From positions 1 through 64,000 of the forward strand of contig NZ_QJTI01000017.1 in the NCBI RefSeq assembly GCF_003217325.1: 64,000 bases of DNA, read 5' to 3'. The translations under genes were made by a program, and so were the position numbers. The notes under the pieces were generated by a model, which saw only the letters and a program-made list of their open reading frames with translations, made no database searches and was not told the origin of the DNA. Shown piece after piece: positions 12,631-51,370 of the stretch; position 1 is the first letter of the stretch; the number at the start of each line of letters is the position of its first letter. This stretch comes from Rhodopseudomonas faecalis. GTDB taxonomy: Bacteria > Pseudomonadota > Alphaproteobacteria > Rhizobiales > Xanthobacteraceae.

Positions 12631-12750
12631 CGGCATTAGGTAGCAAGCGCCACCAGACCTATTCTAACTCCCTGAAATATATAAGGTCTTTGATTCGCAA
12701 ATTTTGAGCGCTGCAAGCGATTGATCGACTTTGACCGAAGGTCACATGCC

Positions 12751-13695
12751 TCACATCGAAGGTGCCGATACACTCATATCGCGAAGGTCGTTATCGAGCT
12801 TGCGTCGTGCCTGGCTGACCGGAATCGGGCGACGGTAGTCTGCCAAGCTTTCAGTGGAAACGCAGATGATTGCATCTGGATCGAACCGTCTTGCCTCGCT
12901 TCTCAGACACGCGGCAATTTGCGGATCAGGCGGAAAATGCAGCGCTGGGTAAGAAACGGTTGTGCCGTTTATCGTTCGCGTTTCGTGGCGGGCGAAGGGC
13001 TTTCGGTCGATTTGGTCATAGAATCCGTCCCATTTCGCGTCCGACAGAAGTGCTTCAGCAACTACCTCGTAGATGGTGCCGTCTCTGTTTGGGGCAACGT
13101 AGACTCGGGTAGATCTTGCTGTAGACCAGATGTGGTTTCGATCAAGGAAGTTGAACTGAAGGTCGCACAGGCTCTTCATTCGAGACGAGTTGAAAAAGCC
13201 AAAGTCCGGGTGTCGTTGATCGAGAATTTCTCGCACTGTGTTGACGTCGGCTGCCAGCTTTTCGGCGACGTGCCGGGACAGTTGTCCGAGATGATCACTG
13301 ATTATCTGATTGGTCGTTCTTATATCAGGCCACGACATCCGCTGGATTTCGCGGATTTGCGAAAAGATACGATGACCTTCGAATGTCCAAGACCTTCCCA
13401 AACCGACGTCATTCCTTGACCTCGCTTGGTCTAGGTCAAAGCTGATCAGGATGTTCAGACAATCAAATGCATCCATGAGGAACGGGTCGATGCTGACAGG
13501 TCCCAACAGAAAGTTGTGCCGCTTCGATGCATGCATTTTGTCGAACCGCGCGATGTCGTCGAAGTAGAGTATGGATTTGGTAGCTTTGTCGAATCGTTCC
13601 CTTATGGCGCCCGACCAGGGAATACTCGCTACCCCATCGAATTTCCGCATGGCCTCTTTCTGAAACATCCGGTTCAGCGCGTCATTCAAATCCAT
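12751..13695 (-). CDS. Passenger protein of unknown function, 314 residues
   Basis: A soluble protein with no recognised domain. Noticeable features: a basic N-terminal helix, a central LDQARSRNDVGLGRSWTFEGHRIF segment, and a C-terminal region FDPDAIICVSTESLADYRRP that could be a strand-loop with acidic residues. It lies between the left terminal repeat of IS1595 copy 1 and the divergent transposase region, so it is a cargo gene. Base composition is visibly lower in GC than the core genes, in line with transfer. No counterpart exists in the other IS1595 copy. Confidence 0.65.
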   Translation of the reverse strand: MDLNDALNRMFQKEAMRKFDGVASIPWSGAIRERFDKATKSILYFDDIARFDKMHASKRHNFLLGPVSIDPFLMDAFDCLNILISFDLDQARSRNDVGLGRSWTFEGHRIFSQIREIQRMSWPDIRTTNQIISDHLGQLSRHVAEKLAADVNTVREILDQRHPDFGFFNSSRMKSLCDLQFNFLDRNHIWSTARSTRVYVAPNRDGTIYEVVAEALLSDAKWDGFYDQIDRKPFARHETRTINGTTVSYPALHFPPDPQIAACLRSEARRFDPDAIICVSTESLADYRRPIPVSQARRKLDNDLRDMSVSAPSM

Positions 13696-13831
13696 ACAGA
13701 TGCCATTCCGTTTGCTTAAGCCTGGACGAAATAATGATTGCCGGCGAGCAACAGAGCAAAGCCAATCTTAGGCATTTGCTAACCATAGATTCCCATGGAT
13801 CTCGGCTACGGTCTCCGATATCTCAGGCCGC

Positions 13832-13921
13832 ATGACCCTTCGTTCTCACATAGCCCTGCGTGGCGCGCGGACCGACCGCCGACATCATGCACGTGTTCTG
13901 GCTATGACTGGGACCGTCTGA
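13832..13921 (+). CDS. Conserved small ORF a upstream of transposase
   Basis: A 29-codon ORF (MTLRSHIALRGARTD...). A related 27-codon ORF at the same place in the other IS1595 copy (38039-38122, minus) begins MTYRSHIALRGERTI. The first dozen codons are strongly conserved; the rest drifts with a small in-frame length difference. No clear ribosome binding site. It may be a leader peptide or the coding relic of a longer gene. Confidence 0.4.
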   Translation: MTLRSHIALRGARTDRRHHARVLAMTGTV

Positions 13922-13991
13922 TCCGGAAACGTCGTTCGCTCGCCATGCAGCCCGTGACTGCTGTGTTCTGCGTATCGAACGAAGGTTTCCC

Positions 13992-14063
13992 ATGTTCTCC
14001 CATCATCCTCTTCGAGGTGCTGCCCTGACGATCGTCGTCGGGGGCTGGTCCATACGTTGCTGA
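13992..14063 (+). CDS. Conserved small ORF b (leader peptide) upstream of transposase
   Basis: A 23-codon ORF starting MFSHHPLRGAALT and ending VVGGWSIRC. An AAGG lies 8 bases before the ATG. The equivalent ORF in the other element (37911-37979) shares 15 of 22 residues, including MFS, GAALT and VGGWSIR, with an equally placed GAGG. It ends 30 bp before the transposase ATG, suggesting translational coupling or attenuation of transposase expression. Confidence 0.5.
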   Translation: MFSHHPLRGAALTIVVGGWSIRC

Positions 14064-14093
14064 CCGATTTGCTTCCTTTCGGAGGAAGTGCTG

Positions 14094-15092
14094 ATGGGAC
14101 AGCATTTCCTCCTCTCCAAAGACGCTCGTGATCTGCCGCTTCAGAAGGTCATGCGAATGACCGAGCCTGGGGCGTATCGCTGGTTCAAGCGAGCCCGCTG
14201 GCCGGAAACCAACGGCGAGCCGTATTGCCCTTCCTGCGGCAATCTGCGGTGCTACGAGCTTGCTCGTGGCAGCCGCTTCAAATGCTCGGCCAAGGAATGC
14301 CGCAAGGAGTTTACCGTCACCAGCGGCACCATCTTTGCCAGCCGGAAGCTGAAGTTTCGGCAGATTCTGGCGGTCATCGCCATGTCGGCCAATGCCGCGA
14401 AAGGCAAGGCTGCGCTGCAGGTTGCCCGAGAGCTTGGGGTCCAGACGAAGACCGCATGGCACAACCTTATGAAGCTGAGAGAGGCGTTGGCGGCTCGACG
14501 TGAGGAGATGCAGCTCGATGGCCAGGTCGAGATCGACGGCATGTATCTCGCCGGTCACATCCGCCCCGAGAACCGCAAGGAAGATCGGGAGGACCGACGT
14601 AAGATTCAGTCGCCGAAGCGCGTGGTCGTCATGGCAGTCCGGGAGCGGGATTCCTCCGGCCAGACGCTGACCCGCGTTACCCTGAGCGAGAACTCCGATT
14701 GCGCATGGGACATGGTCCGGTCACACGTGTCCCGGAAGGCCCACGTCTACGCGGACGAGCATCTGGCCTACGACGAACTTTGCGGCTTGAATCCGCTGAC
14801 CCGCGTGAACCATTCGGAGGCGTACCAGCACGGCTTTGGTGTATCGACCAACATCATCGAGAGCTTCTTCTCTCGCGTCCGACGATCGTACCGTGGGATT
14901 CATCACCGGTTCTCGATGAAGTACCTCGACTGGTATGCCGCCGAACTGGCCTGGCGCGAAGATCGCCGGCGTGTTGGCAATGGAGGGCACGTTCTCGAGA
15001 TGCTGAAGCGCGCCTTGGCGCATCCGACGTCGCGCAATCTCTGCGGATACTGGCAGGGAAACAAGCCGGACGATCTTGTGTGGACGGGATAA
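14094..15092 (+). CDS. IS1595-family transposase, copy 1
   Basis: 332 residues from the ATG at 14094, eight bases after GGAGG (a GTG at 14088 is too close to it). An N-terminal zinc ribbon (CPSCGNLRC and CSAKEC), a helix-turn-helix (GVQTKTAWHNLMKLREAL), and an ISXO2-like DDE domain follow: VEIDGMYLAG (first Asp), VYADEHLAYD (second Asp) and the NIIESFFSRVRRSYRGIHHRFSM region with the third catalytic residue. Very similar to copy 2 at 36882-37880. It appears intact, so it may mobilise either element in cis or trans. Confidence 0.92.
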   Translation: MGQHFLLSKDARDLPLQKVMRMTEPGAYRWFKRARWPETNGEPYCPSCGNLRCYELARGSRFKCSAKECRKEFTVTSGTIFASRKLKFRQILAVIAMSANAAKGKAALQVARELGVQTKTAWHNLMKLREALAARREEMQLDGQVEIDGMYLAGHIRPENRKEDREDRRKIQSPKRVVVMAVRERDSSGQTLTRVTLSENSDCAWDMVRSHVSRKAHVYADEHLAYDELCGLNPLTRVNHSEAYQHGFGVSTNIIESFFSRVRRSYRGIHHRFSMKYLDWYAAELAWREDRRRVGNGGHVLEMLKRALAHPTSRNLCGYWQGNKPDDLVWTG

Positions 15093-15147
15093 TCACGCCC
15101 ACAATAATCGGGTTACGCTATCGCAAAAAACTCGGGAAGTCTTTTGA

Positions 15148-15381
15148 ATGAAGAGGAATCGAAATCGCTGGAATACGCCGCCAGCGTATTTTGACGGTTA
15201 CATGGGGTTCTTGGGCCATAAGTGCGGTTTCGACTTGAAACCGAAGAAGGACATGCAATTCCGCGTAATGTGTGTCGAGCTAAGTGGATTCCCAGACGGA
15301 CCAGTCGTCACACTTCTGCTTGAAGATGATATTCACGAGTGTTTTTGGGAGGTCAAGCGGATGTCCTTTGCGATGAATTGA
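15148..15381 (+). CDS. Hypothetical protein in IS1595 copy 1, 77 residues
   Basis: The start MKRNRNRWNTPPAYF follows GGGAAG at 9 bases. The protein is small and mostly beta (QFRVMCVELSGFPDGPVVTLLLEDDIHECFWEVKRMSF). It sits between transposase and the winged-helix gene and is absent from copy 2, where those two genes overlap by 4 bp. It is therefore an extra insertion into the IS core. No family recognised. Confidence 0.5.
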   Translation: MKRNRNRWNTPPAYFDGYMGFLGHKCGFDLKPKKDMQFRVMCVELSGFPDGPVVTLLLEDDIHECFWEVKRMSFAMN

Positions 15382-15522
15382 GGCGCCAAAAGACCGCAAC
15401 GATTCGTATTTTCCGCGGAAGAAAGTGTACAGACGAGTATAACGTACCGACAAAGGTGCTGCGATCACCAAAAGCTCGTCAGCACATCGAGACCGCATCA
15501 AGCCAGTCGTAGTCCTTGGCCA

Positions 15523-15960
15523 CTACGCCGCGACCTTCCATAGGAGGGATCGGCCGTCGCCTCTGATCGGCTCGACGCGACTGCGCTTTGCGAGACCGGA
15601 CAATGAGATTGCAACCCTGTTCGCGATCTCCGGCATTCTGGGGTCGTCTTCTGGAACGTTCTTTTGCAAGGCCACCCGGATCGCGCATTCATGGGACGAA
15701 ATTGGCACTTGTGCGAGGCGGAGCGTATTCAGGATGCGCGCGGACAGATTATCGTCGGCGAACAATCCACCAAGGAACGTGCCGCGCGTGCTAGAACGCC
15801 GCGTTTTTGATTTTGTCAGCGTGTGGTCTGGTTTGTAGATCTGGATAACCGTATCAATCGCCGCGATGTCACGGTCGATCTTCGCAATTTGGTCAATCAA
15901 TTCCTGACGAACAGACCTCAGTTCATCGTGCTTGCTGCACAGTTCGCGAACAACATCCAT
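15523..15960 (-). CDS. IS1595 accessory winged-helix protein, copy 1
   Basis: 145 residues. The N-terminal ~45 residues form a coiled coil (ELCSKHDELRSVRQELIDQIAKIDRDIAAIDTVIQIY), followed by a basic linker and a winged helix (LSARILNTLRLAQVPISSHECAIRVAL...ISLSGLAKRSRVEPI) ending in WKVAA. The same gene lies beside the terminal repeat of copy 2, about 80 bp from the end and convergent with the transposase. It is therefore a fixed part of this IS group and probably a repressor or end-binding cofactor; that role is inferred. Confidence 0.75.
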   Translation of the reverse strand: MDVVRELCSKHDELRSVRQELIDQIAKIDRDIAAIDTVIQIYKPDHTLTKSKTRRSSTRGTFLGGLFADDNLSARILNTLRLAQVPISSHECAIRVALQKNVPEDDPRMPEIANRVAISLSGLAKRSRVEPIRGDGRSLLWKVAA

Positions 15961-16173
15961 TGGAACGCCCCAAATATAGATGGGGCCATTATGAAGTCGG
16001 GTGGGGCGTTGGTCTGGTGGCGTTTGCTACCTAATGCCGGATGTCTGCGTAGGACGGCTAATACGGCGTCGACAAGGTGCGCACATCGAATGACACCGCC
16101 GTCGGCCTAGATTGAGGCCATACTAGTTAACACTGCTTTGGCCATCATCGGCACTGTCCTGATCAGCGAGGCG

Positions 16174-30016: not shown

Positions 30017-30074
30017 TGGCATTGGGTAGCAAACGGCACCAAACCAATATCCCGCCCGACTTTGACCTATAGCC
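30017..30074 (+). repeat. Solo IS1595-type terminal sequence (decayed)
   Basis: TGGCATTGGGTAGCAAAC followed by GGCACCAAACCAATATCCCG aligns over nearly 60 bp with the left end of IS1595 copy 2 (36370-36427), up to and including the TAGCCCC block just before its winged-helix gene. Several substitutions show decay. No element body follows; it runs straight into an IS3 orfB remnant. Confidence 0.7.
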
Positions 30075-32836: not shown

Positions 32837-33321
32837 TCGCTCGCTCCCGGCGCTTCGCGCTCTTGAAACTCAATTGACCAACGTTCGATGAGGCAGCGCA
32901 GCCCTTTAAGAAATGAACTGTTTTCTGCGCATTGCTCGCGAAGCCACTCAGAACGTTTCACCAGTTCTCGGTTATAGGTCGTGCGGAGGAGGTCTACGAA
33001 TGCTGGCGCGTCATCCCCTGCTCGGAAGACTATGCCTCGTTCATGATCGGCCACGACCTCAATAAGGCGGATTCTTTGAAGTAACTGGATGCCATCATCT
33101 ATACGGCGTCGGCGGATATGATATTCGCTGAAGCTCGATGGACCAGTGGGGTGGATATCGGACGGCCCGCCTGCTTGCGACGTGTGAACGACGAAATAAT
33201 CCAGCAAGCCCAATTCATCCCTATCCAAATCGATCGACCGGAATGCATTCAGGATGACGAGCGCGCGCATCCCCGTTTCGAGGACGCCGTTGAACAAATC
33301 TGCTTGGGTCGAAGATTTCAT
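32833..33321 (-). CDS. ABC-3C middle component 2
   Basis: 162 residues from MKSSTQADLFNGVLETGMRALVIL at 33321, preceded by GGAAGGAAAA and overlapping the effector stop (ATGA); the longer open frame is rejected. It has a winged-helix-like domain (LDYFVVHTSQAGGPSDIHP...SFSEYHIRRRRIDDGIQLLQRIRLIEVV), the signature of the small middle component that couples ATPase and effector. Overlaps on both sides make a tight three-gene operon. Confidence 0.8.
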   Translation of the reverse strand: MKSSTQADLFNGVLETGMRALVILNAFRSIDLDRDELGLLDYFVVHTSQAGGPSDIHPTGPSSFSEYHIRRRRIDDGIQLLQRIRLIEVVADHERGIVFRAGDDAPAFVDLLRTTYNRELVKRSEWLREQCAENSSFLKGLRCLIERWSIEFQEREAPGASE

Positions 33322-34331: not shown

Positions 34332-34769
34332 GGAAGGATTGAGGCTTCCTTTAAGGATATGCCGAGCATCGAAAGGCGATTTGTCACAAAGGTGTTCTCT
34401 AAAACATAATATCGGAGCGTTAAAGAGGATGCCGCCTCGCGAACGGATGACAGTCAACGGTCCGCATCGCGAGATTTGCGTCAATCTCGTCATTGAGAAG
34501 AAGACAATTACGTAAGAGCTGCCCGTGGGTCAGGCAGTGGCTGTACGTTGGCAGTCGCCGAGCAAGGAATGCTCCGACTTCTGTGATCGTTGTCCGGAAT
34601 TGCCGCGATGGACTGGCATCTGAAATGCCCGCCTTCCGTTCGTTTTCAATGCTACGACATCAGTCTTGCGCACCCCATAAGACTGCACTTCATCCCAAAT
34701 GAACGTCACGGCGCCCCATAAGACCGTCGTGCTCTCTGCCACGCACAGAACCCCGGAACGGTACCGTAG
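34332..34769. other. Intergenic region between ABC-3C operon and IS3 remnant
   Basis: About 440 bp. It holds the ABC-3C promoter and noncoding sequence up to the broken end of the IS3 remnant. The open frame continuing from orfB into 34530 is random after the break. No other feature seen. Confidence 0.4.
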
Positions 34770-35919: not shown

Positions 35920-36369
35920 ATGAATCTGCTGAATCTACCATCGACGGTATGCGCGATAGGCGACGTACACGGGCGCGCTGACCTGCTTAGGCTCCTGATC
36001 GACTTTCTCGATGACCAGTCAGCCCGAGCCCCGCAGCCCCCTCGCGTCTACTTCTTAGGAGACATCGTTGATCGTGGGCCTGACAGTCGCCAAGCAATGG
36101 AAATCGTTTGCGAGACGCTCCGACGCTGGCCCGAAAGTCGCTTCGTCATGGGCAACCACGACTGGCTATTTCGAGACGGTTTGACGTCGCAATTGCTGGT
36201 TCACGATTGGCTTGAACGCGGGGCGATCAACACCCTCGCCTCATACCTAGGTGACTCGGATTCATACACCTTCGACGATCTCTGGCTCATCAAAGATCGA
36301 TATCCCGAACATCTCCGTATTCTTCAGTCCGCATCCCTAATCGAACGCATTGGCAAATATGCATTCATT
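35920..36369 (+). pseudogene. Serine/threonine metallophosphatase, 5' part (interrupted)
   Basis: MNLLNLPSTVCAIGDVHGRA starts a PPP-type metallophosphatase: GDVHGR (metal ligands), FLGDIVDRGPDS and MGNHDW are intact. The frame reaches KYAFI and is cut by the IS1595 transposon at 36370. The gene resumes at 44144 with HAGIDP. Before insertion it encoded a protein of roughly 245 residues of the bacterial PrpA/ApaH-like type that dephosphorylates proteins or nucleotides. Confidence 0.88.
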
Positions 36370-36447
36370 CGGCATTAGGTAGCAAACGCCACCAGACCAA
36401 CATCCCGTCCGACTTCATAATAGCCCCATCTATAATTGGGGTTTTCG

Positions 36448-36885
36448 ATGGACGTTGTTCGCGAACTGCGCCGCAAGCAGGATGATTTGAAGGCTGATCG
36501 AAAGGCGCTTGTCGAGCAGATCGCGGAGATCGACAGGAAGATTGCCGCCGTCGATGCAGTTATTCAGATTTACGAGCCTGGACATTCGCCTCGGAAGGCT
36601 GCCGCTCAACGTGGCAGGAAGGGCGGGCAGTTCCTCGGGGGATTGTTCGCCGAGGACAATTTCTCCGCCCGAATCCTCAACACGCTCCGTTTGGCGCAAA
36701 CGCCGATTTCAACGCACGAATGCGCCATTCGCGTTGCTCAGCAAAAGGACATCGCTGAGGACGATCCTCGCATGTCCGAGATCGCTGGTCGGGTGTCGAT
36801 CCAATTGTCCGGCCTCGCGAAGCGAAATCGTGTCGAGCAGATTAAGGGAGATGGACGGGCCTATCTATGGCGGGTTGCTGCCTAG
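36448..36885 (+). CDS. IS1595 accessory winged-helix protein, copy 2
   Basis: 145 residues from MDVVRELRRKQDDLKADRKAL (start chosen by comparison with copy 1; three extra upstream codons are ignored). Coiled coil to about residue 45, basic linker (AAAQRGRKGGQ), then winged helix (SARILNTLRLAQTPISTHECAIRVA...SIQLSGLAKRNRVEQI). It overlaps the convergent transposase stop by 4 bp. Conserved position at the terminal repeat in both elements implies a role in transposition control. Confidence 0.78.
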   Translation: MDVVRELRRKQDDLKADRKALVEQIAEIDRKIAAVDAVIQIYEPGHSPRKAAAQRGRKGGQFLGGLFAEDNFSARILNTLRLAQTPISTHECAIRVAQQKDIAEDDPRMSEIAGRVSIQLSGLAKRNRVEQIKGDGRAYLWRVAA

Positions 36886-37880
36886 CCCGTCCACACAAGA
36901 TCGTCCGGCTTGTTTCCTTGCCAGTATCCGCAGAGATTACGAGACGTTGGATGCGCCAAGGCCCGCTTCAGCATCTCGAGAACGTGCCCTCCATTGCCGA
37001 CACGCCGGCGATCTTCACGCCAGGCCAGTTCGGCTGCGTACCAGTCGAGGTACTTCATCGAGAACCGGTGATGAATCCCGCGATACGAGCGCCGGACACG
37101 AGAGAAGAACGACTCGATGATGTTGGTCGAGACGCCGAAGCCGTGCTGGTAGGCCTCCGAATGGTTCACCCGGGTGAGCGGGTTAAGGCCGCAGAGTTCG
37201 TCATACGCTAGATGTTCGTCGGCATAGACGTGAGCCTTGCGGCTGACGTGCGCCCGGACCATGTCCCAGGCGCAATCAGAGTTCTCGGACGGGGTGACGC
37301 GGGTGAGCGTCTGCCCAGTCAGGCGACGTTCTCGGACAGCCATGACGACAAGGCGCTTCGGCGACTGAATCTTGCGTCGGTCCTCCCGATCCTCCTTACG
37401 ATTCTCGGGTCTGATGTGACCGGCCAGGTACATGCCGTCGATCTCGACTTGACCATCGAGCTGCATCTGCTCACGTCGAGCTGCCAACGCCTCTCTCAGC
37501 TTCATCAGGTTGTGCCATGCGGTCTTCGTCTGGACTCCAAGCTCTCGGGCGACCTGCAGCGCAGCCTTGCCTTTTGCGGCATTGGCCGACATGGCGATGA
37601 CCGCCAGAATCTGCCGAAACTTCAGCTTCCGGCTGGCGAAGATGGTGCCGCTGGTGACCGTGAATTCTTTACGACATTCCGCGAACGAGCACTTGAAGCG
37701 GCCACCACGCTTCAACGTGTAACACCGCACGTTGCCACACTCGGGACAGGTCGGTTCGCCATTGGTCAGAGGCCAGCGGGCTCGCTTGAACCAACGGTAC
37801 GCCCCAGGTTCGGTCATTCGCATGACCTTTTGGAGCGGCAGATCGCGAGCTTCTTTCGAGAGGAGGAAATGCTGTCCCAT
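36882..37880 (-). CDS. IS1595-family transposase, copy 2
   Basis: 332 residues, ATG at 37880 preceded by GGGGGAGG. Zinc ribbon (CPECGNVRC, CSFAEC), helix-turn-helix (GVQTKTAWHNLM), DDE domain (VEIDGMYLAG, VYADEHLAYD, NIIESFFSRVRRSYRG). Differs from copy 1 at scattered residues mainly in the zinc ribbon and around RRLTGQTLTRVTPSE. Intact, so the transposon is probably still mobile. Confidence 0.93.
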   Translation of the reverse strand: MGQHFLLSKEARDLPLQKVMRMTEPGAYRWFKRARWPLTNGEPTCPECGNVRCYTLKRGGRFKCSFAECRKEFTVTSGTIFASRKLKFRQILAVIAMSANAAKGKAALQVARELGVQTKTAWHNLMKLREALAARREQMQLDGQVEIDGMYLAGHIRPENRKEDREDRRKIQSPKRLVVMAVRERRLTGQTLTRVTPSENSDCAWDMVRAHVSRKAHVYADEHLAYDELCGLNPLTRVNHSEAYQHGFGVSTNIIESFFSRVRRSYRGIHHRFSMKYLDWYAAELAWREDRRRVGNGGHVLEMLKRALAHPTSRNLCGYWQGNKPDDLVWTG

Positions 37881-37910
37881 CAGCACCTCCCCCGAGAGGA
37901 AACGAGATGG

Positions 37911-37979
37911 TCACCGTATGGACCAGCCCCCGACCATGGTCGTCAGAGCCGCACCGATAAAATGGAGATTGGAAAACAT
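37911..37979 (-). CDS. Conserved small ORF b (leader peptide), copy 2
   Basis: 22 codons, MFSNLHFIGAALT to VGGWSIR, with GAGG 8 bases before the ATG. Counterpart of 13992-14063. The identical parts are MFS, GAALT and VGGWSIR. It ends about 30 bp before the transposase start. Confidence 0.5.
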   Translation of the reverse strand: MFSNLHFIGAALTTMVGGWSIR

Positions 37980-38038
37980 GGGATACCTCGTTCTGGATGC
38001 ACATCGCAGTGATCTGCGTGGCGAACGACGGTGTCCGA

Positions 38039-38122
38039 TCAGACGATCCCGAACATAGCCGGGAGACGTGCAATGCGGATTGTCCGCTCGCCACGCAGGG
38101 CTATGTGAGAACGATAGGTCAT
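38039..38122 (-). CDS. Conserved small ORF a, copy 2
   Basis: 27 codons, MTYRSHIALRGERTI to MFGIV. Counterpart of 13832-13921; the first ~12 codons are nearly identical. No clear ribosome binding site. An 8-bp-arm hairpin (ACGTGAGC, loop GAGAT, GCTCACGT) lies just beyond its upstream side at about 38175-38195 and separates it from the FtsH-like gene. Confidence 0.4.
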   Translation of the reverse strand: MTYRSHIALRGERTIRIARLPAMFGIV

Positions 38123-38197
38123 GGCGGCCTCTTAGCCGGGACACCTGATCAGATCCAGGCCGAACGGCAGTCAACGTGAGCGAGATGCTCACGTGGC

Positions 38198-40141
38198 TTA
38201 ATCAATTTTAGCCTTAGTTTCGATAACCAGCTTGAATCGAGGTTGACGCAAGAGGATTTCCCGGACCTCATCTCCGGAAAGCGGTCGCTCCATCAAGCAT
38301 TCTGCAAGTCGTTCAACTGCCTCAAGCTGAGATCCAATAATGCGCCGCGCGACATCGAGCTGTTTGGCGAGAATAGCTTCGACGCGCATCCGTAACTCGC
38401 GATTGGATTGAAGGCTGGCCAGCAGGTCAGCCTCTTCTCGAGACGAAAGATAGGTCAGGTGTTCTCCCAGACCCACGCTTGCTTCCATCAAGGTCGCTTT
38501 GACTGTGGCGAGATGGAGATCGGTGCCAGGACTGCCTCCGGCTCCATCCGAGCGACATCCGAAGAAGAGATCTTCGGCGGCAATGCCTGCCAGCAAGACG
38601 GCGATGTCTGCAAGATACGTATCATGCGTGCAATCATAGGAAGTGATCGGTCGCGCTCGTACGCCGCCGGCAATGCCGGACTTGCCGACTTCAACATGCG
38701 CAGCGATAGCGGCCACCAGGACCATATCGAAGCCAAATTCGGTGATGACCGCGGCATGTCCAGCTTCGTGGATGGCCGCTCGCCAACGGGAGTTATCTGG
38801 AATCTCGATCAGCTCAGGAAGCGACGCCAAGACGTCGTCGACAACCATCTGGCGTCGCTCTCGTCTGGCCCGTCGGCGGGCCTCGCGAACGAAGCGCTCA
38901 AGGTCGGCGCTGCTGGCACCACTGGTTCTCCCAACGATCGAGGATAAAGCGACATCGGCGAGCGCGCCTCTCAGATGCCATCTCAGGATGCCGTCACGGC
39001 TGGATTCGTCGGGCAACGGAATCTCGATGGTTCGATCAAGACGACCTGAACGGATCAATGCCTTGTCGATGCGGGACGGGTGGTTGCAGGCGCCGATTAC
39101 GACTACACCTTCACGAGAATCAGCTCCATCGATGCATTCCAATAGTGCGTTGACGACTTCTGTGGAGTATTGGGCATTGTGGTCCCCAAATCGCTCTCGA
39201 TCACCGACTGCATCAATCTCGTCCAGAAACAGAATACTCGGCGCTTTGTTTTTGGCTTCATCAAATGCTGCACGCATGGCCTTCAGGAGGTCGCCGAGAT
39301 GCCCTTTGGCCTGCCACCTCGCAATACTGCCCATGATCAGCGGAACGCCGCAGGTCTTTGCCAAAGCCTTGGCATAGGTCGTCTTGCCCGTACCCGGGAC
39401 GCCATGCAGCAGAACGCCACGATCGACATCGCTCCAAGGTAACATCCCATCTGCCCACGCTTTCAAGTCGACAGCCAGTTCATGGCCCCAACTGCCTGCC
39501 TCGCCGAGGCCATGCATCTCGCTGAGGGATGGCACCGTGGACTTATCGGCCCCCGTGTTTAATTTCAGTTGCGCCGTTTTCAGCCTCTGCAAGCGCTCCA
39601 GCGTTTGCCGAACGGATCGGCCCCGGCGAATGGCCTGACCGATCATGGAGGCCGGAGCCTGCATCATCAGATCGAGTGCCGAGGGCTCAGGCACCTGCCC
39701 CAGCGTGAGCCGACAAGACGCCTCCAAATGACTTCGTGTTGGCCTTTCCATGACGACGACTGTGTCGGCTGCGGCAATGATCGGCTCCGGAGTGAACTGG
39801 ACGCTTTCTGCAATCACCAGAAGGCGAGATCTTCGTAGGGCCGAATTCAATTCCGATTCACCGAGGATCGGTCGTGATCCGGTCCTGCGCATTTTGGTGA
39901 GGTTCAAAACCTCGTAGCTACTTTCTCGAACAAATAGGTCTGCGGCGTCGCTGACGTCGGCCGACGTCAATCCCTCCGCGATCATGACCACGACAATCGA
40001 CGGTAATCCCCGACGAACGTGATATTCGTTTCGAAGTGCGCGAGCGAGACAACAATACGCAAGGAACAGGGCCGCGTTGGCTTTGAAGGTCTTCAGAAGG
40101 CTGGATTGATGGCGTGAAAGGCTAGCAGATGGCTTGGGCAT
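38198..40141 (-). CDS. Soluble FtsH-like AAA+ zinc protease (transposon cargo)
   Basis: 647 residues from MPKPSASLSRHQ (a GTG at 40174 is an alternative). The N-terminal ~210 residues are a unique domain without membrane helices. The AAA+ domain has GVPGTGKTT (about 246), SILFLDEIDAVG and the second region RSGRLDRTIEIPLP. The peptidase domain has HEAGHA (about 456) and a distal Asp in PGTDLHLAT, the three zinc ligands of M41/FtsH proteases. Real FtsH has two N-terminal membrane helices; none are seen, so this is a cytosolic protease. A paralogue lies at 49397-51313. Confidence 0.82.
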   Translation of the reverse strand: MPKPSASLSRHQSSLLKTFKANAALFLAYCCLARALRNEYHVRRGLPSIVVVMIAEGLTSADVSDAADLFVRESSYEVLNLTKMRRTGSRPILGESELNSALRRSRLLVIAESVQFTPEPIIAAADTVVVMERPTRSHLEASCRLTLGQVPEPSALDLMMQAPASMIGQAIRRGRSVRQTLERLQRLKTAQLKLNTGADKSTVPSLSEMHGLGEAGSWGHELAVDLKAWADGMLPWSDVDRGVLLHGVPGTGKTTYAKALAKTCGVPLIMGSIARWQAKGHLGDLLKAMRAAFDEAKNKAPSILFLDEIDAVGDRERFGDHNAQYSTEVVNALLECIDGADSREGVVVIGACNHPSRIDKALIRSGRLDRTIEIPLPDESSRDGILRWHLRGALADVALSSIVGRTSGASSADLERFVREARRRARRERRQMVVDDVLASLPELIEIPDNSRWRAAIHEAGHAAVITEFGFDMVLVAAIAAHVEVGKSGIAGGVRARPITSYDCTHDTYLADIAVLLAGIAAEDLFFGCRSDGAGGSPGTDLHLATVKATLMEASVGLGEHLTYLSSREEADLLASLQSNRELRMRVEAILAKQLDVARRIIGSQLEAVERLAECLMERPLSGDEVREILLRQPRFKLVIETKAKID

Positions 40142-40506
40142 AGCGAAAACCGATGCGTTGGAAGCACACCGCACGGCGGTGCAGGCATCGGATGGAACGG
40201 CTGATTGCGGGGTGCACGACTATGAGGACGCCGCAGCGTCTAAGATCAACTCGAATTCGAATTATCAGTCGCTAAAGGGGCTTTCACCGCCCGCTGAATC
40301 GTCATCGTCCCACCCGCGTTCGGGCGATTCGTGAGCGATCAGCGTATGAAGCGGTGGAATTTCATGACGAGAACGTATAGAGAACATCTGCGCTCCCGTC
40401 AACCGTTTTCGAACTCGAATGTCCTGAACCGCTTGCCAGAGCCGTTGACCCTAAGCGGGATCTTTCGACATCGCCGAATCCGATTTTCTAGTCGACCCGC
40501 ATTACG

Positions 40507-42636
40507 TCACGACTCTGCCGGATCGAATACCTGTTCCGGCTCCCCCTCGGAAACCTTTGGAGCCTCGATGAGCTTCGGCCTTGACCTGCTCAAACCTGCA
40601 GCGCGTAAAGTCGCCCTGTTTCGCATCCATGCGTCGTTCACAAGGTCTTGCCATTGGATAACTTCAATCGATCCTCGATACTGGTTCTTCAGTGGCCGAA
40701 TGCGGCCTTGGCCATTTGCCGTTGTCTCCCAATTCGACAGCTGTTGCTTCAAGTCCCCAACGATATCAGCGATGACATAGCAGTAGAACACGCAATCGTC
40801 CGCCACCCGGATACGGCTGCGGTCGAATGATTCAAGTTCACCGCCGCGTAGTTGACCGAGGTACTTCACTATTTGTGCTTCTATTTGATCATCGGCTTCT
40901 TTGTAGTCTTCCCGCCCGGGTCTCTTGAATTCGACTATCATCATCGTCCGCAGCGGTTCAGATGTGTCTACGGAGTCGCCCTCGGTCACACCCAAGCCAT
41001 ATGCTAGATTCCATACTAATAGGTCCGGCCGTTCCGCTGATCCACCACTGGCCATAATCGCGTCGAGCCGCTTGTCGGAGGAGAACGCCCTTGTGAACGC
41101 TAATCGTTCGTCCACAATCCAGAGTTCATGAGCACGGTTCTTTACCTCCGTGGAATCATCGCCACGTATCCCCATTGGACAGATGAATGAGTGTAACGTC
41201 TTCTCAAGATAGTGATCGTCGTCCTTATCTTTCCGGGAGCGAAGACGTTTGATCAGCTTCTCTAAAAGCTCTAGAGCAAGTTTTCGACGAACGACGTGCT
41301 GAGCGAGAGCCAGTTGCTCAGACGATTGTATACCCCTGGCAGCATCGCTGACCGTCTTGTCGAAATTCGCAGGGATGTCCTGCAGATCCAACGTATCGAT
41401 TAGCGACTGCAATGCTCGTTGTCGCTCTTCTTCCCGCCTAATCTGATACTTCACCAAGCCCGCGGCAAAATCTTCTGCAGTTGTTGCATGAAATGGGACT
41501 CGTTGCAGTTGCGTTTCGTCATCGTCGAAGCCAAAAGTCGGATATCGCGTCACAAATGACTGGTAGTTCTCTTTTCGTTTTTCGACATAGGCCGAAACTT
41601 GTGCTGGAAGAAGTTTCGTTCGGACCTGCTCCATGCAGCCGCGACTGATCTCGTTGAGCGTCTTCTCAGGTAGATTGAATGCGGTACGCCCCTCGTTCAC
41701 TCGCAGGTCCAAGTATTCGCCTGAAACGCAGCCGTGAAATACGAGGTCGTTCTTTGCATCGCGTGTAAGGTCCGTCACGCCGAGCAGTCCATCGACCTTG
41801 CGCGTCTCGACGGTCCGGCCATTTGCGAGTAGGTGAAGCTGATGCTTCCCGTCAAGGCCAGTGCTGGCCTCAGCCTTACACGTGAATCCGACGATGGATA
41901 GCGTTCCAAAATCCTTCAACTCAAAATGGCCGGTTTCTAACGGCGAGCCGACTGTGAGTTCGGCCACCGCATTGGGGAAGGTGGTAATATCACCTTCGAG
42001 ATCGACGATGATTGTGGGGCCTACGCCCAATAGGAAGTCTGAGATGAAGTGCGCACTGAAATACCGAAGAAACGTGTCGGCTCGCTTCGGGAACGTGTCC
42101 GCATACTCTTTCGTTCTTATTCCACAGAACGTGATCGTGGTGCCGGTCGAAAGGCCAGTTGCTAGCTCGTCTGCCCGCGTTGGCTTAACTTGATCCTCGT
42201 GTTCCAAAACGAAGGAGAAACCACGTCGGAACCGCCCTGTTGGATCGTCGTAGACGCTCTCAACGACGATCGACTTGAAGGCATCCAACCAGAACAGCCG
42301 ACCAACGCCTTTGCCGCCCTTGACGCGCTTGAAATCCGTGTCGACTTCGCAAAATGCGTCGTAACGACTAGCATCGAGACCTATCCCGGTGTCCGCCACG
42401 ACGATCTCAATCTTGTCAGAGTCGGAGAGCGACTTGACGCGTATCGAGATCTTTCCTTTGGCGACATCTGTGCCCAGCAGATCTTCTATCGCGTACATCG
42501 AATTGCTGACAGCCTCGAAAAGTGGCTGTAGCGCCTGAGCAGCATTTGAAGGTTTCGGCAGCTTCCTAATACGGTTTTCGATGTTTTGAGTAAGCGTCGC
42601 CACGATGAAATCCCGAAAGGTGTCAACGGGCACCAT
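40507..42636 (-). CDS. GHKL ATPase fused to PD-(D/E)XK nuclease-like domain
   Basis: 709 residues from MVPVDTFRDFIVATL (in-frame GTG at 42699 possible). The N-terminal Hsp90/MutL/MORC-type ATPase shows the N box EAVSNSMYAIED (41-52), DTGIG (82-86) and GGKGVGRLF (107-115). A helical middle follows, then a C-terminal nuclease-like region: DERLAFTRAFS, RPDLLVWNLAYG and MIVEFKRPGREDY (E-x-K at about 570). GHKL-nuclease fusions occur in restriction-like systems. It is adjacent to and co-oriented with the FtsH-like gene, about 365 bp upstream of it. Confidence 0.75.
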   Translation of the reverse strand: MVPVDTFRDFIVATLTQNIENRIRKLPKPSNAAQALQPLFEAVSNSMYAIEDLLGTDVAKGKISIRVKSLSDSDKIEIVVADTGIGLDASRYDAFCEVDTDFKRVKGGKGVGRLFWLDAFKSIVVESVYDDPTGRFRRGFSFVLEHEDQVKPTRADELATGLSTGTTITFCGIRTKEYADTFPKRADTFLRYFSAHFISDFLLGVGPTIIVDLEGDITTFPNAVAELTVGSPLETGHFELKDFGTLSIVGFTCKAEASTGLDGKHQLHLLANGRTVETRKVDGLLGVTDLTRDAKNDLVFHGCVSGEYLDLRVNEGRTAFNLPEKTLNEISRGCMEQVRTKLLPAQVSAYVEKRKENYQSFVTRYPTFGFDDDETQLQRVPFHATTAEDFAAGLVKYQIRREEERQRALQSLIDTLDLQDIPANFDKTVSDAARGIQSSEQLALAQHVVRRKLALELLEKLIKRLRSRKDKDDDHYLEKTLHSFICPMGIRGDDSTEVKNRAHELWIVDERLAFTRAFSSDKRLDAIMASGGSAERPDLLVWNLAYGLGVTEGDSVDTSEPLRTMMIVEFKRPGREDYKEADDQIEAQIVKYLGQLRGGELESFDRSRIRVADDCVFYCYVIADIVGDLKQQLSNWETTANGQGRIRPLKNQYRGSIEVIQWQDLVNDAWMRNRATLRAAGLSRSRPKLIEAPKVSEGEPEQVFDPAES

Positions 42637-43053
42637 GACTAGCCGACGTTGCGTTGTAAATGGGCGACGATGGACTTTCGCTGATCGCGTTTCTGACACC
42701 GCGAATCATGTGAACTCAAAGAGGCGTCTTTCTGACCGTAGGGTCTTCTGCTCCGCCGCAGACCGAAGTTCGATCTTGGGCGTGTGGCGGACTTTGGCGT
42801 GAATTCACGTGTTTAGTCGCCACGAAGATCACAAGACGAATATATCTCACCTTTTCAGGAGGTTACGGGCTTCAGTGGCGTTCACGGACTAGCGGTCCGG
42901 TTGCCGTCGGTCCGACTCCTTGCTACTATCATTTTTGGCTTGCCACCTTCGACCTGTCGCCGGGTCAAACGGCCCCTTAACAATCATCCCGGTCCTTTCG
43001 GATATGGGCATCTGGCGTAATCGGCGAACCGTTGCCCTAACCGAGGATCGAAG
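42637..43053. promoter_or_regulatory. Divergent promoter region with 12-bp palindrome
   Basis: About 415 bp between the minus-strand GHKL-nuclease gene and the plus-strand 212-aa gene. It contains the perfect palindrome CGTGAATTCACG (42799-42810), a candidate operator. No coding sequence seen. Confidence 0.4.
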
Positions 43054-43692
43054 ATGAAGTTGTCCATTGGAATTTCCGACGTTGAAGCAATGAAGGCAGA
43101 CCTGCGGGCTGTACTCCCTGACGTCAAATCATCCCATCGTACCGAAGCCTTTGCCCGAGGACTCGGTTGGCGTACAAACGCAGCAATGCGTGTTGAACTG
43201 GCGTCTGGCCCCGTCTCAGTCGCTCCTGATGATGATGCGTTCTTCGGATATCTTAGCGAACACTCGTTCGAGGCACCGAATGGTTGCTTGACTAGGATTC
43301 TGGCAAAGTCTGGAATCCGCCATGCGATGGCGCTTGAACCAACATTGACGCATTTCGGATACGGCATCTTCCGTGACCGTAGTCAGTCCCCCGAAGTTCG
43401 AAAGGCCAAGTTCGCAGAGAATCGTGCGGCAATGCTCGAGGAGTACGCTGTCGAGGAATTCATTCGCGCGGTCGACTATCTATCCCGATTTGGGAAGCGT
43501 AAGACCATCAATCGTAATTCCAATAGCTACGGCTTGAAGCACCAGGCGGAACGATTTGCGAAGGGTTATGTCGCGAACGGCATGCTGATCGCGGCCGGTC
43601 TTGCACTGGGGTATACTGTCAGACCGACCGACCCGGGCTCCCCAAATGCATTCTTTAACATCACTTCCAAGCCTGCAGGAAAGAGGACCTAA
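43054..43692 (+). CDS. Hypothetical cargo protein, 212 residues
   Basis: MKLSIGISDVEAMKADLRAVL. N-terminal part contains a helix (VEAMKADLRAVLPDV) and HRTEAFARGLGWRTNAAMRVELASG, a pattern seen in uncharacterised mobile-element proteins. The middle is rich in aromatic residues (ALEPTLTHFGYGIFRD) and the C-terminus has a conserved-looking NRNSNSYGLKHQAERFAKGYVANGMLIAAGLALGY, which could be a DNA-binding or replication-accessory helix. No domain recognised. Cargo of IS1595 copy 2. Confidence 0.65.
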   Translation: MKLSIGISDVEAMKADLRAVLPDVKSSHRTEAFARGLGWRTNAAMRVELASGPVSVAPDDDAFFGYLSEHSFEAPNGCLTRILAKSGIRHAMALEPTLTHFGYGIFRDRSQSPEVRKAKFAENRAAMLEEYAVEEFIRAVDYLSRFGKRKTINRNSNSYGLKHQAERFAKGYVANGMLIAAGLALGYTVRPTDPGSPNAFFNITSKPAGKRT

Positions 43693-43810
43693 ACGGTCGT
43701 GACATTCGGACGCTAGGTGAAAGATCGGGTGAAACTGACCGGGTCTTCAGCTGGCGTCCATTCCATGCCTCCCAGAAAACCGGTCAAGAACCTGCGATGA
43801 AGGTGGCTAT

Positions 43811-44032
43811 ATGTGTAACTCGGTACGTTATGCCGGTCGCGAGTATCAATCGCCGCGCGAACTCGCCCAGCTTGTTGGAGGCGTGGACCATCTCGTTTGG
43901 TTAGACAATCGACCTGGCGAAATGAATAGCTGCCTGTGTCCGGTCGACTTGGAAGCAACGCTTGGACATGCGGGATTTCGCTGGGAGCGCGGCGCTGATC
44001 CCATGGAGTGGACAGCGTTCAAGGGCACCTAG
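43811..44032 (+). CDS. Hypothetical cargo protein, 73 residues
   Basis: MCNSVRYAGREYQSPRELAQ with GAAGG upstream. It has four Cys/His-poor strands and CLCPVDLEATLGHAGFRWERG; small compact domain. It ends 110 bp before the right terminal repeat. Function unknown; a full ORF with a plausible start. Confidence 0.5.
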   Translation: MCNSVRYAGREYQSPRELAQLVGGVDHLVWLDNRPGEMNSCLCPVDLEATLGHAGFRWERGADPMEWTAFKGT

Positions 44033-44143
44033 GCCGACAAGATTGCAAGGTGTTGGATGGAGGCATTGTTCTGAGGCGATAGATAATCTTTCGATATATC
44101 AATGCGTTAAACGGGTTTTGGTGGCGGTTGCTACCTAATGCCG

Positions 44144-44497
44144 CATTCATTCATGCTGGAATCGACCCTTGCCGTCCGATTGACAAGCAAGATTTGAAGG
44201 TTTCTCCTCCAAATCAGGGGGCCATTCTTAGATCATGTAGGACCGCTGTCGCACGTTGTCGTCCATGGTCACTCTCCATTGACGCCACCCCAGCCTGTTG
44301 TAACTGAAAACCGGATCTCGATAGACACCGGCGCCGTCAAATCTGGCGTCTTGACGATGGCTCTCATCGACACGAACAGCGACCGTATTCAGTTCTATTC
44401 AACTGATCACAGGGGAAGTGTGAATCAGGTCGATCCGGTTCGTCTCGATCGCGGGTTCGGAACGGTCGGCGCTCTAATCTGCGAAGTCAACGGTTAA
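44144..44497 (+). pseudogene. Serine/threonine metallophosphatase, 3' part
   Basis: After the second CATTCATT copy the frame continues HAGIDPCRPIDKQDLKV. Near 44205-44216 a one-base frameshift follows; the next frame gives IRGPFLDHVGPLSHVVVHGH, then PPQPVVTENRISIDTGAVKSG, the C-terminal metal-ligand region of the family. So this gene carries a frameshift in addition to the transposon. It ends ALICEVNG at 44497. Confidence 0.85.
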
Positions 44498-44714
44498 CCA
44501 TGCACTCTTCCAATGCGCGCTAATTGCGTTGAGCAGAAGATTCGACGATTCATCGATCACTCAAGGCCGCGTTCTGTTCAGCTCACAGGCGCGATGAAAA
44601 CACTTCAGGGAAAGTGCACGCGCAATCTTACCAGGAACACTATCTCGGTTAACATCACGACTTTTCTTTGAGAACATGATCGTTTGGTCGTCCATTTGCA
44701 GCTCGGCCGAGGGA

Positions 44715-47700
44715 TCAATGATATTTCTCACCTCGGTTATCGAAGGCACTTTTTGTTCCTTCTAAGACGTCAACGACGGCCTTATTCAGAGTTTCATCCT
44801 CGATTGACCCGGACTGATAGACAATATGTATCCCATTCCGCCTTTCGAGCGTCGCGTGAATGATTTGCTCGGCATCGCACACAACCGCTAAGTTTGGATT
44901 GTGAGTGACCATGATGATCTGTCGAGATTTTTTGGCCTCGTTTACGACCGGAACCAGAAGGCTCACAACCGTTTCGTTGTCCAAATTCTCTTCTGGTTGA
45001 TCTAGCAGAATTGGGTTGCGACCTTTGTCCACTAGCAGATAGAAAATCAACAAGAGTGCGCCGCGTTGTCCAGGCGACAGCTGCTCAATCGGTGCATCTT
45101 GAAATAACAGAGTATATTTAGGCTCTAGGTACTGGAGGCCAAAGAGGTAGTTATAGACATCTGCCGGGCTTTTGTCCTTCCGCATCAGGGCGCGGATTCC
45201 CGGAATGCCAGCCACAGACAGTGCGGCTGTAGCCGAAAGCAAGGTTGCAACGTCCGAAGCAAATCCCTTCGCGTCGTTGGCGCTGTCAAATCGATACTTT
45301 TCAAAGCGGCTGCGGATCGCGGCGAAACTCTCATCCTCGCCCCGAAGGTCGCCAGCATTCTGCTTGACCATTCCGAACAAGTTGGAGCCGACCGTTTCAG
45401 GTGACCCCAACAACCGGGCTTGGAACTGAAGTTTATATTCCTGACGGATTAGAGCGTTATCTTGAATTAGCTTTTGCAGTGGAGCAAACAAGCCTTCGCG
45501 GGCCGATCTCTGCCCCTCCAAGACAGAAAAAATTTCCATGGTGACATCAAGCCGAGACGCTTCAAGAGATGCAAGCGCGGCTGGAAGTGCCTGTATCTGA
45601 GAAAGGCGCTTTTGTAAGCCCTTGAGGCTGTCCGGCTCGGTGTCAGAGCCCTGTATTGCGTCGAGACCATTCTGCCATACAGTGAAAGCTTGAATGTAAG
45701 CTTGGTATTTCTTTTGTGGTTCATTGAGGGTTGCAGATAACTGTTGCCGCTCGGCGAGAAGCTTGTCTATGTCAGAGCGGTTCTTCTCAATCGCCGTCTT
45801 TGTGGCTTCCTCCCGTGCCACCAAAGCGGACTGCTCCTGTGTTAGGAGATCCTCGCGGATCCTCAAAGCAACAAAATTCGCTGGCGGTATTCCGACAACG
45901 GAAAGGTCATCAGCGATCTCGGATAAGAACGAGGCGAACTGCGTCTTAAACAGGCTGATGCGCTCCGCAATATTGCGCAGTGCACGTTGTTGTCTACTGA
46001 TGGCCTGGCTGTTGTCAGCCTCGGCCTTGGCCTCCGCCTTCAATACTTCCAGTTCATCGCTGATGTTTGTAAGTCGCTCACTGGCAGCTCTTTGAGCCTC
46101 AGTCAGTTCATCCGTAGGTTTATCGACAACGGTAGGAACGGTTGCGTTATGTTCCTTGATCTGGTTTTCTTTAAGTCGGATCTGTTCTTCTATGTTCTTT
46201 CGGACCGTGGGATGTAACTGATCTTCGATGTCTACTATCCGCTCGTTGATGGCGCGTAACGACTTGCGAAGCTCATCGGTACGAGCTCTAAAGACTTTCT
46301 CTTGGGCCTCAATCAATTGGTCGAAGCTCAGGGCCTCAAGACGAACATTCGTAGGCACGTGAGAGAAAATGACATCTCGCAATTCTTTCTCGAATACGTC
46401 GGTTTTTCCAGACACGTGATCGTTGCAAAGCGCCTCGAAACGGCCTTGCGGGATATATCGCACAAGCTCAACGCGCTCAGCTGATGGATCGTCGGCGAGA
46501 TTCATCGAACATGGATTGCCCGCGATCCAAGAGAGCGTACCAACAAACTGACGGGCCGGTTCGCCGGATTTTCCTCGGAAACGGTCGCGCTTTAAGAAAG
46601 AGAAGTGCGCGCTCTGCTGTGAGTTTCCGAGTAAAGCCATAATGTCAGCAAGTGCGCTTTTGCCGCTTCCCTTGTTTCCTATGATCGCGACAAGGTCAGG
46701 GTTCAATGGTATGTCGGTTCCGTGTAGCCACGTGTCGACAAGTGTACTATTTGGCGATCGGGTGACCCCAACCCGATCTATGTAGAATGTCTTGTGGTTA
46801 TTGATCCGCTCGAGTTTAGGGGGAACTCCACCAAGGAATGAGCGATTTGCAGGTTCCTTTATTGCTTGTAGTAGGCCCTTCCAAGTCGGATCCGCCTTGA
46901 TCCACGTACGTTTACCCATTGGAAAATCGCCGTACCCGCGCTTGTCGTTCGTGCCGTTGCCCATAAATTGGTGAGCGTCGCTTCCTGAAACGGCTAATCG
47001 GGGCTTCTTGAGCGCAGCTTTAAAGTTGTCGATATACTTTGCGTTGCCAGCGGTCGTTATCCCGCAAAAGGCAGCCCAAAGATCGGGGTTGCGAGTTTCA
47101 AAAATCGGCGAACTCTCAAAGAGGGATAACGTGTAAGCGTAGTGCTCCATATGATCGATAGAGCAAAGACCGTCATTGGTGGAGAATGGCATGAAGCCTA
47201 CGGCATGTCCGTTTGGAACGCACTCTATTGCCTCTTTATAGGAGGCGACCGTTAACTCGGCGATCGTACATCCAGCGCGGTGCGCCTCTTCCTCATCTGA
47301 ATCGACGGCGGATTTATCGAAGCCATGCTTCGACAACTTGTCCGCACCGACGTAACGAGCATATGAAACCAGAGCGGTGCGCGAGAGCGGCTGGTTCGTT
47401 AGCTCAAGTCTTAGTCGAGCAAGGAAATCCCTGAGATCTTGATCGTCGATTTTATCTGAAAAGACGACATGAGCATTTAGGCGCTTTTCCATCGGAGCAG
47501 CGAGACGCAATTCGATTCCAGGGAAGACGGTCTTTTTGAGCGATGGTGCACTGGCGTCCTCGCAACGGCTCTTGAGTGCGAACCAGCCGTCAAATGTCCA
47601 ATAATCCATGAGCGCATACGCCGCTGGATTGGCGTCGTTGAGAACGCCAATCATTTCGTCAATGAGCGATGCGTTGCGGTCTTTGTCGGCGCCGAAGCGT

Positions 47701-48969: not shown

Positions 48970-49037
48970 TCCCTTCACCTTCTCCCGTCCACCTTAACCG
49001 AACGCAGCTCGTGCGTCCGGCAACAATGGAGCACGTC

Positions 49038-49373: not shown

Positions 49374-49396
49374 GCGCATCGATCTCGGAGAGAACA

Positions 49397-51313: not shown

Positions 51314-51370
51314 AGCTACATACTACTGCTTGGCCTAGGCTCGAAAACTACACTTCTCGTATCGTTGTCT

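What the first reader, a model, noticed from the sequence alone, without database searches (positions are those of the whole stretch)
36370..44143. A 7.8-kb IS1595-family transposon carrying a protease and a GHKL-nuclease, with an exact 8-bp target duplication
Seen: matching inward ends (CGGCATTAGGTAGCAA plus CGCCACC, one mismatch in 24), an exact CATTCATT on both sides, and restoration of the phosphatase reading frame (KYAFI to HAGID) after removing the element. IS1595-family elements are known to make 8-bp duplications and some carry passengers. Here the cargo is a soluble FtsH-like protease, a GHKL-ATPase/PD-(D/E)XK fusion and two unknown proteins. That combination looks like a conflict system moving on an IS1595 vehicle.
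Basis: partly seen in the sequence, partly recalled or inferred. Interest (0 to 1): 0.85.

Follow-up and report, generated by a model that had tools for sequence, protein, structure and literature searches.

The report
Gene-carrying IS1595 transposon with swappable cargo
A 7.8-kb jumping element has landed in a phosphatase gene, bringing a protease and a likely anti-virus nuclease, and it belongs to a widespread group of such elements that share the same jumping machinery but carry different cargo, in many cases DNA-restriction genes.

Summary
The transposon is real. Ends (24 bp, one mismatch) and the exact 8-bp duplication were confirmed, and a relative (G014) carries the uninterrupted phosphatase with one copy of the target. 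A second element (12631-16039) has a 95%-identical transposase and different cargo. Of 80 loci kept from one transposase scan, 74 have the accessory gene convergent and 44 have matching ends with an exact 8-bp duplication; with further loci 49 of 86, control 0 of 86. Restriction, R-M or DNA-methylase genes were placed in 17 of 46 other insertions, none in this element's own transposase clade. The GHKL protein has the architecture of Shedu type I-D (VcSduA, antiviral in print); sequence-profile membership is inconclusive. The cargo is not one conserved system: inspected GHKL relatives lack an FtsH-like neighbour. The FtsH-like gene does sit beside this transposase in Afipia (76% identical). Verdict: new variant of the known cargo-carrying IS1595 kind ('transporter IS'); defence is likely for the nuclease, unproven for the rest.

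The parts
35923..36369 (+). 5' part of the interrupted calcineurin-like phosphatase gene (target)
   Evidence: PF00149 9.3e-12; uninterrupted in G014
36362..36369 (.). target-site duplication, left copy CATTCATT
   Evidence: single copy in G014
36370..36393 (+). terminal inverted repeat, accessory-gene side
36448..36885 (+). accessory protein 'acc', 145 aa: N-terminal 40-residue helix plus winged helix; part of the mobile core
36882..37886 (-). IS1595-family transposase, 334 aa, zinc ribbon + DDE domain
   Evidence: PF12762 2.1e-43, PF12760 1.6e-7; NF033547 133 bits
38198..40141 (-). cargo: soluble FtsH-like AAA+ / M41 protease (ORF can start at 40174)
   Evidence: PF00004 5.5e-35, PF01434 7.1e-11; Walker A/B and HEAGH present; 76% identical homologue next to tnp in Afipia L037
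40507..42636 (-). cargo: GHKL ATPase + C-terminal PD-(D/E)XK protein, Shedu type I-D-like architecture (ORF can start at 42699)
   Evidence: HATPase_c 1.9e-4; N, G1, G2 and PD..ExK, QxxxY motifs conserved in 12 of 12 sequences; hhalign with an SduA_C set prob 85%
43054..43692 (+). cargo: 212-aa protein of unknown function
   Evidence: no Pfam/PADLOC/NCBIfam match; PHROG 9576 6e-7, unknown function; 57% homologue on a Bradyrhizobium plasmid
44120..44143 (-). terminal inverted repeat, cargo side
44144..44151 (.). target-site duplication, right copy CATTCATT
44152..44500 (+). 3' remainder of the phosphatase gene, out of frame relative to G014
   Evidence: alignment (end approximate)
12631..16039 (.). 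second element of the same family: tnp 14088-15092 (+), acc 15523-15960 (-), cargo 12751-13695 (-, 314 aa unknown); no target duplication
30017..30062 (+). lone decayed accessory-side end of a third copy
   Evidence: 88.9% over 45 bp to this element's end

Best explanation
36370-44143 is one cargo-carrying IS1595-type transposon, probably autonomous. Shown: ends, 8-bp duplication, empty site in a relative, a complete transposase ORF with zinc ribbon and DDE domain, and membership in a large group in which the transposase is paired with a convergent winged-helix protein and cargo differs from element to element. Inferred: the transposase acts at the 24-bp ends and inserts with an 8-bp stagger; the winged-helix protein binds DNA and regulates or assists transposition; cargo is exchanged outside the conserved transposase-accessory block. 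Inferred for the cargo: the GHKL/PD-(D/E)XK protein is a stand-alone nuclease that restricts phage or plasmid DNA in the manner of VcSduA. The FtsH-like protein is a soluble AAA+ metalloprotease, perhaps a second independent conflict or quality-control gene, and the 212-aa protein is unknown. The cargo is a set of separate genes, not one machine.
For: Empty site. Family: 49 of 86 loci with ends >=15/18 and exact 8-bp TSD, control 0 of 86 (the second window element was added by hand, making 50 of 87 in the printed tally); acc convergent in 74 of 80 scan loci. Cargo exchange: tnp 95% identical between the two window elements, yet DNA similarity stops about 245 bp beyond tnp and resumes only in the last 25 bp. 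Movement as units: a nearly identical 6.5-kb type III R-M element in two Acinetobacter species at unrelated sites, and two identical 3,243-bp copies with different duplications in one Methylobacter genome. FtsH-like + tnp + acc in the same order in Afipia L037, 74.6% DNA identity over about 4 kb. GHKL and nuclease motifs invariant in 12 of 12; VcSduA architecture and activity in PMC12137116, passages read. Acc fold: winged helix.
Against: Pfam SduA_C is not matched by the GHKL protein even at E<=10; only profile-profile comparison sees it (prob 85%), and the AlphaFold2 model of this protein failed (pLDDT 41). No convincing solved-structure match by sequence (best E 0.098). No R-M gene placed in the 15 other elements of the same transposase clade. 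GHKL and the 212-aa protein were not met in any other element of the family that I looked at. The Afipia element lacks a recognisable left end. Foldseek gave the accessory model no match at E<=0.001. No activity was measured.
Confidence: 0.75

Rival explanations
1. The FtsH-like protease and the GHKL nuclease form one two-gene conflict system (for example protease-controlled nuclease) that the transposon carries.
For: They are co-directional neighbours in this element. The AAA part of the protease resembles IetA of the two-gene IetAS defence system (1.9e-28).
Against: Three inspected GHKL homologues (77%, 56%, 56%) have no FtsH-like gene within about 9 kb, and seven homologues in order genomes have none within 1.5 kb. 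In 297 genomes the two occur together in three and are adjacent only in the window's own genome. The Afipia locus has the FtsH-like gene with tnp but no GHKL. No S8 peptidase (IetS type) was found in the element.
Confidence: 0.08
2. A generic island: an IS1595 insertion sequence that happens to sit among unrelated island genes, the outer ends being chance or older insertions.
For: The region is an island with other mobile genes, including TnsA-like, Mu-type transposase and TniQ genes and IS remnants read by eye.
Against: Exact 8-bp duplication at the outer ends and an empty site at exactly those ends in G014; the family-wide pattern of ends enclosing cargo.
Confidence: 0.02
3. The cargo is mainly transposon self-management or selfish ballast (protease and ATPase acting on transposition), not defence.
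For: A second, 40%-identical FtsH-like gene lies in the surrounding island near tns-like genes, so this protease type recurs in mobile DNA; Rhizobiales-clade elements carry mostly small, unknown or LysR-like genes.
Against: The GHKL/PD-(D/E)XK architecture matches an antiviral protein; restriction, R-M or methylase genes in 17 of 46 other insertions.
Confidence: 0.15

Closest known systems
IS1595 family with passenger genes, 'transporter IS' (Siguier et al. 2009, not held; known here only through passages in PMC3129680 and PMC11891212)
   Same: IS1595 transposase, 8-bp duplications, passenger genes inside the ends; PMC11891212 names ISNha5 (IS1595) as carrying transcription regulators
   Different: Convergent winged-helix gene as a near-constant partner (74 of 80), cargo elements up to 11.6 kb, R-M and GmrSD cargo in part of the group; the subgroup (ISNha5, ISNwi1, ISSod11) could not be assigned because ISfinder is not held, and the ISNha5 regulator may be this same protein
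VcSduA, Shedu type I-D / paraMORC3 (PMC12137116, passages read)
   Same: N-terminal GHKL ATPase with motifs, C-terminal PD-(D/E)XK with the ExK lysine, single gene
   Different: No Pfam SduA_C match at E<=10; relation rests on profile-profile comparison and motifs; activity untested
FtsH (M41 AAA+ protease)
   Same: AAA and M41 domains, Walker motifs, HEAGH
   Different: Far below the FtsH equivalog cut-off (184.7 against 600 bits); no membrane-helix-like window in the N-terminal 240 residues
IetAS defence system
   Same: AAA domain of the cargo protease matches IetA models
   Different: No IetS-type subtilase in the element; the protease domain is a fused M41

Membership tests
IS1595 family | DDE_Tnp_IS1595 catalytic domain | tested here: met
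   PF12762 148 bits, cut-off 27; NF033547 133 bits, cut-off 75
IS1595 family | N-terminal zinc ribbon | tested here: met
   PF12760 31.6 bits, cut-off 25.4
IS1595 family | 8-bp target duplication | tested here: met
   exact, with empty site
IS1595 family | assignment to a named subgroup (ISNha5, ISNwi1, ISSod11 ...) | not testable with these tools
   ISfinder is not held; paper searches gave no sequences
transporter IS (passenger-carrying IS) | non-transposition genes inside one pair of ends | tested here: met
Shedu type I-D | N-terminal GHKL ATPase | tested here: met
   HATPase_c E 1.9e-4 but 22.3 bits, under the cut-off of 26.4; N, G1, G2 motifs 12 of 12
Shedu type I-D | SduA_C / DUF4263 nuclease domain | tested here: inconclusive
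   Pfam SduA_C not hit at E<=10; hhalign prob 85%, E 6e-6 for one comparison; PD..ExK invariant in 12
Shedu type I-D | anti-phage activity | not testable with these tools
   needs a phage assay
FtsH | AAA + M41 with HEXXH | tested here: met
FtsH | membrane-anchored N-terminus | tested here: not met
   Kyte-Doolittle 19-residue windows >=1.6 only at residues 473-476 and 520-521; N-terminal 240 residues peak at 1.43; hence 'FtsH-like', not FtsH
IetAS | IetA ATPase with IetS subtilase | tested here: not met
   IetA-like AAA only; no S8 peptidase among the element proteins scanned

The most novel reading that the evidence does not exclude
Transposons built as 'ends + IS1595 transposase + convergent winged-helix partner' are a widespread bacterial class of vehicles that repeatedly pick up and swap defence genes (type IIG, type II and type III R-M, GmrSD, Shedu-like nuclease), so that defence genes move as single transposition units without plasmid, phage or Tn7-like machinery. 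The partner protein is the dedicated factor that lets an IS-sized transposase move loads of up to about 11.6 kb.
Probability: 0.4. Interest if true: 0.75.

Novelty: new variant of a known kind. Interest (0 to 1): 0.58.

Why it matters
How defence genes move between genomes is an open question usually answered with plasmids, prophages, ICEs and Tn7-like elements. This element and its relatives show a much simpler vehicle: one transposase, one DNA-binding partner, short ends, exchangeable load. The elements are small enough to test for transposition in a laboratory strain, and the accessory protein gives a searchable handle to list further cargo, much of it unknown. My paper searches turned up no report of R-M cargo on this group in the listings and passages I saw; many subscription papers, including the founding 2009 paper, are not held.

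Tried and rejected
Cargo as one conserved two-gene system: rejected by co-occurrence. One inspected neighbour (Rhizobium indicum, L032) has a gene labelled 'AAA family ATPase' 3.4 kb from GHKL; it is not an FtsH-like relative at E<=1e-5. G004 as evidence that the FtsH-like cargo travels with the transposase: first noted as possible, then rejected, because its M41 fragment looks like the resident FtsH-like gene of a Tn7-like island broken by an IS1595 remnant whose transposase piece is 96% identical to this one over 162 residues. Vibrio fluvialis 'Shedu' label on a GHKL homologue: the label belongs to the neighbouring gene, overlapping by 4 bp. Left end of the Afipia element: not found. Solved structures for the GHKL protein: none convincing. 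AlphaFold2 of the GHKL protein with 4 rows: pLDDT 41, unused. Phage records: no match to the Microvirga accessory protein (E<=1e-3), to the GHKL N-terminal 479 residues (E<=1e-3) or to the Afipia FtsH-like protein (E<=1e-30). Placing all R-M cargo: one Pfam RE_XamI member and one ResIII member of the pooled scan were not assigned to an element. A search for RE_XamI in the genomes of L101 and 12 Rhizobiales-clade loci found none, but the search rang nowhere, so it does not exclude it; the three plasmid elements were not in that search. PADLOC control has limits: the alignment mode counts members per family, not proteins with any match, so 343 against 80 families is a coarse contrast; several PADLOC models are near-duplicates, and cargo and control sets were both called by a greedy ORF script of mine. 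The flank control also held defence families (Lmu, Gaj, Cas6). The scan kept the best 80 of 145 relatives.
Full report
OBSERVATION. The sequence holds what was described: CATTCATT, 24-bp end, 7.7 kb, inverted end with one mismatch, CATTCATT. The own genome has the end pattern five times, all in this window, and the backward control none. In G014, the best-matching same-genus genome, the phosphatase is open through 294 aa at 95% identity, and the target octamer is there once with one base different. After the junction the window's own gene has a one-base length difference to G014, so it would be broken even without the insertion.

FAMILY. A scan with four transposases kept the best 80 of 145 relatives. 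The accessory gene lies convergent within 3 kb downstream in 74 of 80; one lies farther off and five have none, one of these with only 145 bases held there. Adding four plasmid loci, G028 and this element gives 86 loci searched for ends: 49 have ends matching at >=15 of 18 with an exact 8-bp duplication, and the same test with reversed, uncomplemented ends gives 0 of 86. The second window element was added by hand because it has no duplication. Of the loci without a pair, many show one end only, or two ends without an exact duplication, and some are cut by contig ends. Ends share CGGNATTA(G/T)GTAGCA; duplications are A/T-rich, 37% GC over 47 elements. Elements span 2,377-11,609 bp, median 4,350 (48 elements, two duplicates removed, both window elements included).

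CARGO ACROSS THE FAMILY. 106 cargo proteins of 150 aa or more (103 from other elements and the second window element, 3 from this one) matched 343 PADLOC families at 1e-5, led by one Mads family and DNA methyltransferases; 106 size-matched proteins from the flanks of 44 loci matched 80, none with more than two members. Individual Pfam scans of 40 chosen proteins and homology links place restriction, R-M or DNA-methylase genes in 17 of 46 other distinct insertions: L071, L081, L082, L083, L085, L086, L089, L091, L096, L100, L101, L106, L107, L109, L110, L114, L115. L071 and L110 are assigned by homology to L082 and L107, and L107 and L110 are copies of one element at two sites. The 17 include type IIG, type III, type II (HindVP with a C5 methylase) and GmrSD kinds. 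On the transposase tree this label needs 4 changes and is clustered: 15 of 23 rows in one beta/gamma/Campylobacterota clade plus L101, and 0 of 17 rows in the Rhizobiales clade that includes both window elements (L110 left out as a near-copy). For that clade seven other elements had their largest cargo protein scanned singly and the rest only in the pooled scan, in which one RE_XamI and one ResIII member stayed unplaced. So 'restriction carrier' describes part of the group, not the close kin of this element, whose cargo is mostly unknown, LysR-like or an ATPase.

MOBILITY AND EXCHANGE. A 6.5-kb type III R-M element is practically identical (99.95-100%, apart from a short gap) in two Acinetobacter species at unrelated sites; two identical 3,243-bp copies with different duplications sit in one Methylobacter genome. 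The two window elements have transposases 95% identical, but their DNA agrees only over the accessory-transposase block and the last 25 bp of the other end. The Afipia locus L037 agrees with this element from just after the GHKL gene through FtsH-like, transposase and accessory gene (74.6% over about 4 kb; FtsH-like proteins 76% identical), with other genes beyond and no recognisable left end. Cargo is therefore exchanged on the far side of the conserved block; how is not shown.

CARGO HERE. GHKL protein: motifs N, G1 and G2, PD..ExK and QxxxY are invariant in 12 sequences (Pseudomonadota, one Actinomycetota, two viral contigs), and a six-member SduA_C set matches its C-terminus at 85% probability, although Pfam SduA_C does not. 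VcSduA of the same architecture is antiviral and needs both domains (PMC12137116, passages). FtsH-like protein: AAA and M41 with HEAGH, no membrane-helix-like window in the N-terminal 240 residues. 212-aa protein: unknown; a 57% homologue sits on a plasmid with no FtsH-like, GHKL or transposase relative in the 18.6 kb fetched. Homologues of GHKL and the FtsH-like protein were not neighbours elsewhere in what I inspected.

SETTING. The element lies in an island that also has TnsA-like (under the Pfam cut-off), Mu-type transposase and TniQ genes at 52194-58087 and a second FtsH-like gene. The 20 kb fetched from G014 share the phosphatase, a 1026-aa ATPase and the second FtsH-like gene; its tns region was not fetched. 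The insertion is thus probably nested in a Tn7-like element, whose own ends I did not determine.

COMPARISON. Passenger-carrying IS, including IS1595 members, are known as transporter IS; I saw this in passages of PMC3129680 and PMC11891212, not in the 2009 paper. What I did not find in print (listings, with passages of PMC9296519, PMC10214660 and PMC6563490) is the constant winged-helix partner and the R-M cargo of this group. PMC10214660 reports an R-M cluster upstream of an IS1595 element in Acidithiobacillus, as a neighbour rather than as cargo.

Noticed in passing
window 30959-34493: Probable Lamassu-type defence locus: 33318-34493 matches LmuA (PADLOC 1.2e-69); the neighbouring 625-aa SMC-like and 178-aa genes look like LmuB and LmuC by eye (not scanned).
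   Followed up: partly
window 44715-47795: 1026-aa PHP/ATPase-like protein; best PADLOC match Ppl 3.3e-20; present in G014.
   Followed up: partly
window 48325-58087: Tn7-like gene set: TnsA-like (PF08722 5e-4, under cut-off), Mu-type transposase, TniB-like by eye, TniQ, next to tgt/queA (by eye); a soluble FtsH-like gene at 49124-51313 lies beside it. G004 (L027) shows a similar gene set by eye, with its FtsH-like gene broken by an IS1595 remnant.
   Followed up: partly
window 35923-36369 and L035:9205-11791, L036:8365-18003: Soluble FtsH-like genes and metallophosphoesterase genes lie near each other in the window island, in Rhizobium acidisoli (adjacent) and in Shinella (about 7 kb apart); possible functional link.
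   Followed up: no
window 12631-16039: The second element has no target duplication and separates a truncated HerA-like gene from an RTX-like gene (both by eye), as after an element-mediated deletion or rearrangement.
   Followed up: partly
L078, L079, L089, L099, L106, L112: Two accessory genes in tandem in some elements.
   Followed up: no
L010:9922-15101: Microvirga element with a second end of the same orientation 2.4 kb beyond the first: alternative end use could be a way to capture cargo.
   Followed up: no
L037:3679-3767 and 7518-7612: The roughly 95-bp stretch upstream of the FtsH-like gene is repeated upstream of a GmrSD-like gene (by eye) in the Afipia locus.
   Followed up: no
L149:974-4368: In Vibrio fluvialis a GHKL homologue forms an apparent operon with a separate SduA_C nuclease gene beside a type I specificity subunit.
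   Followed up: no
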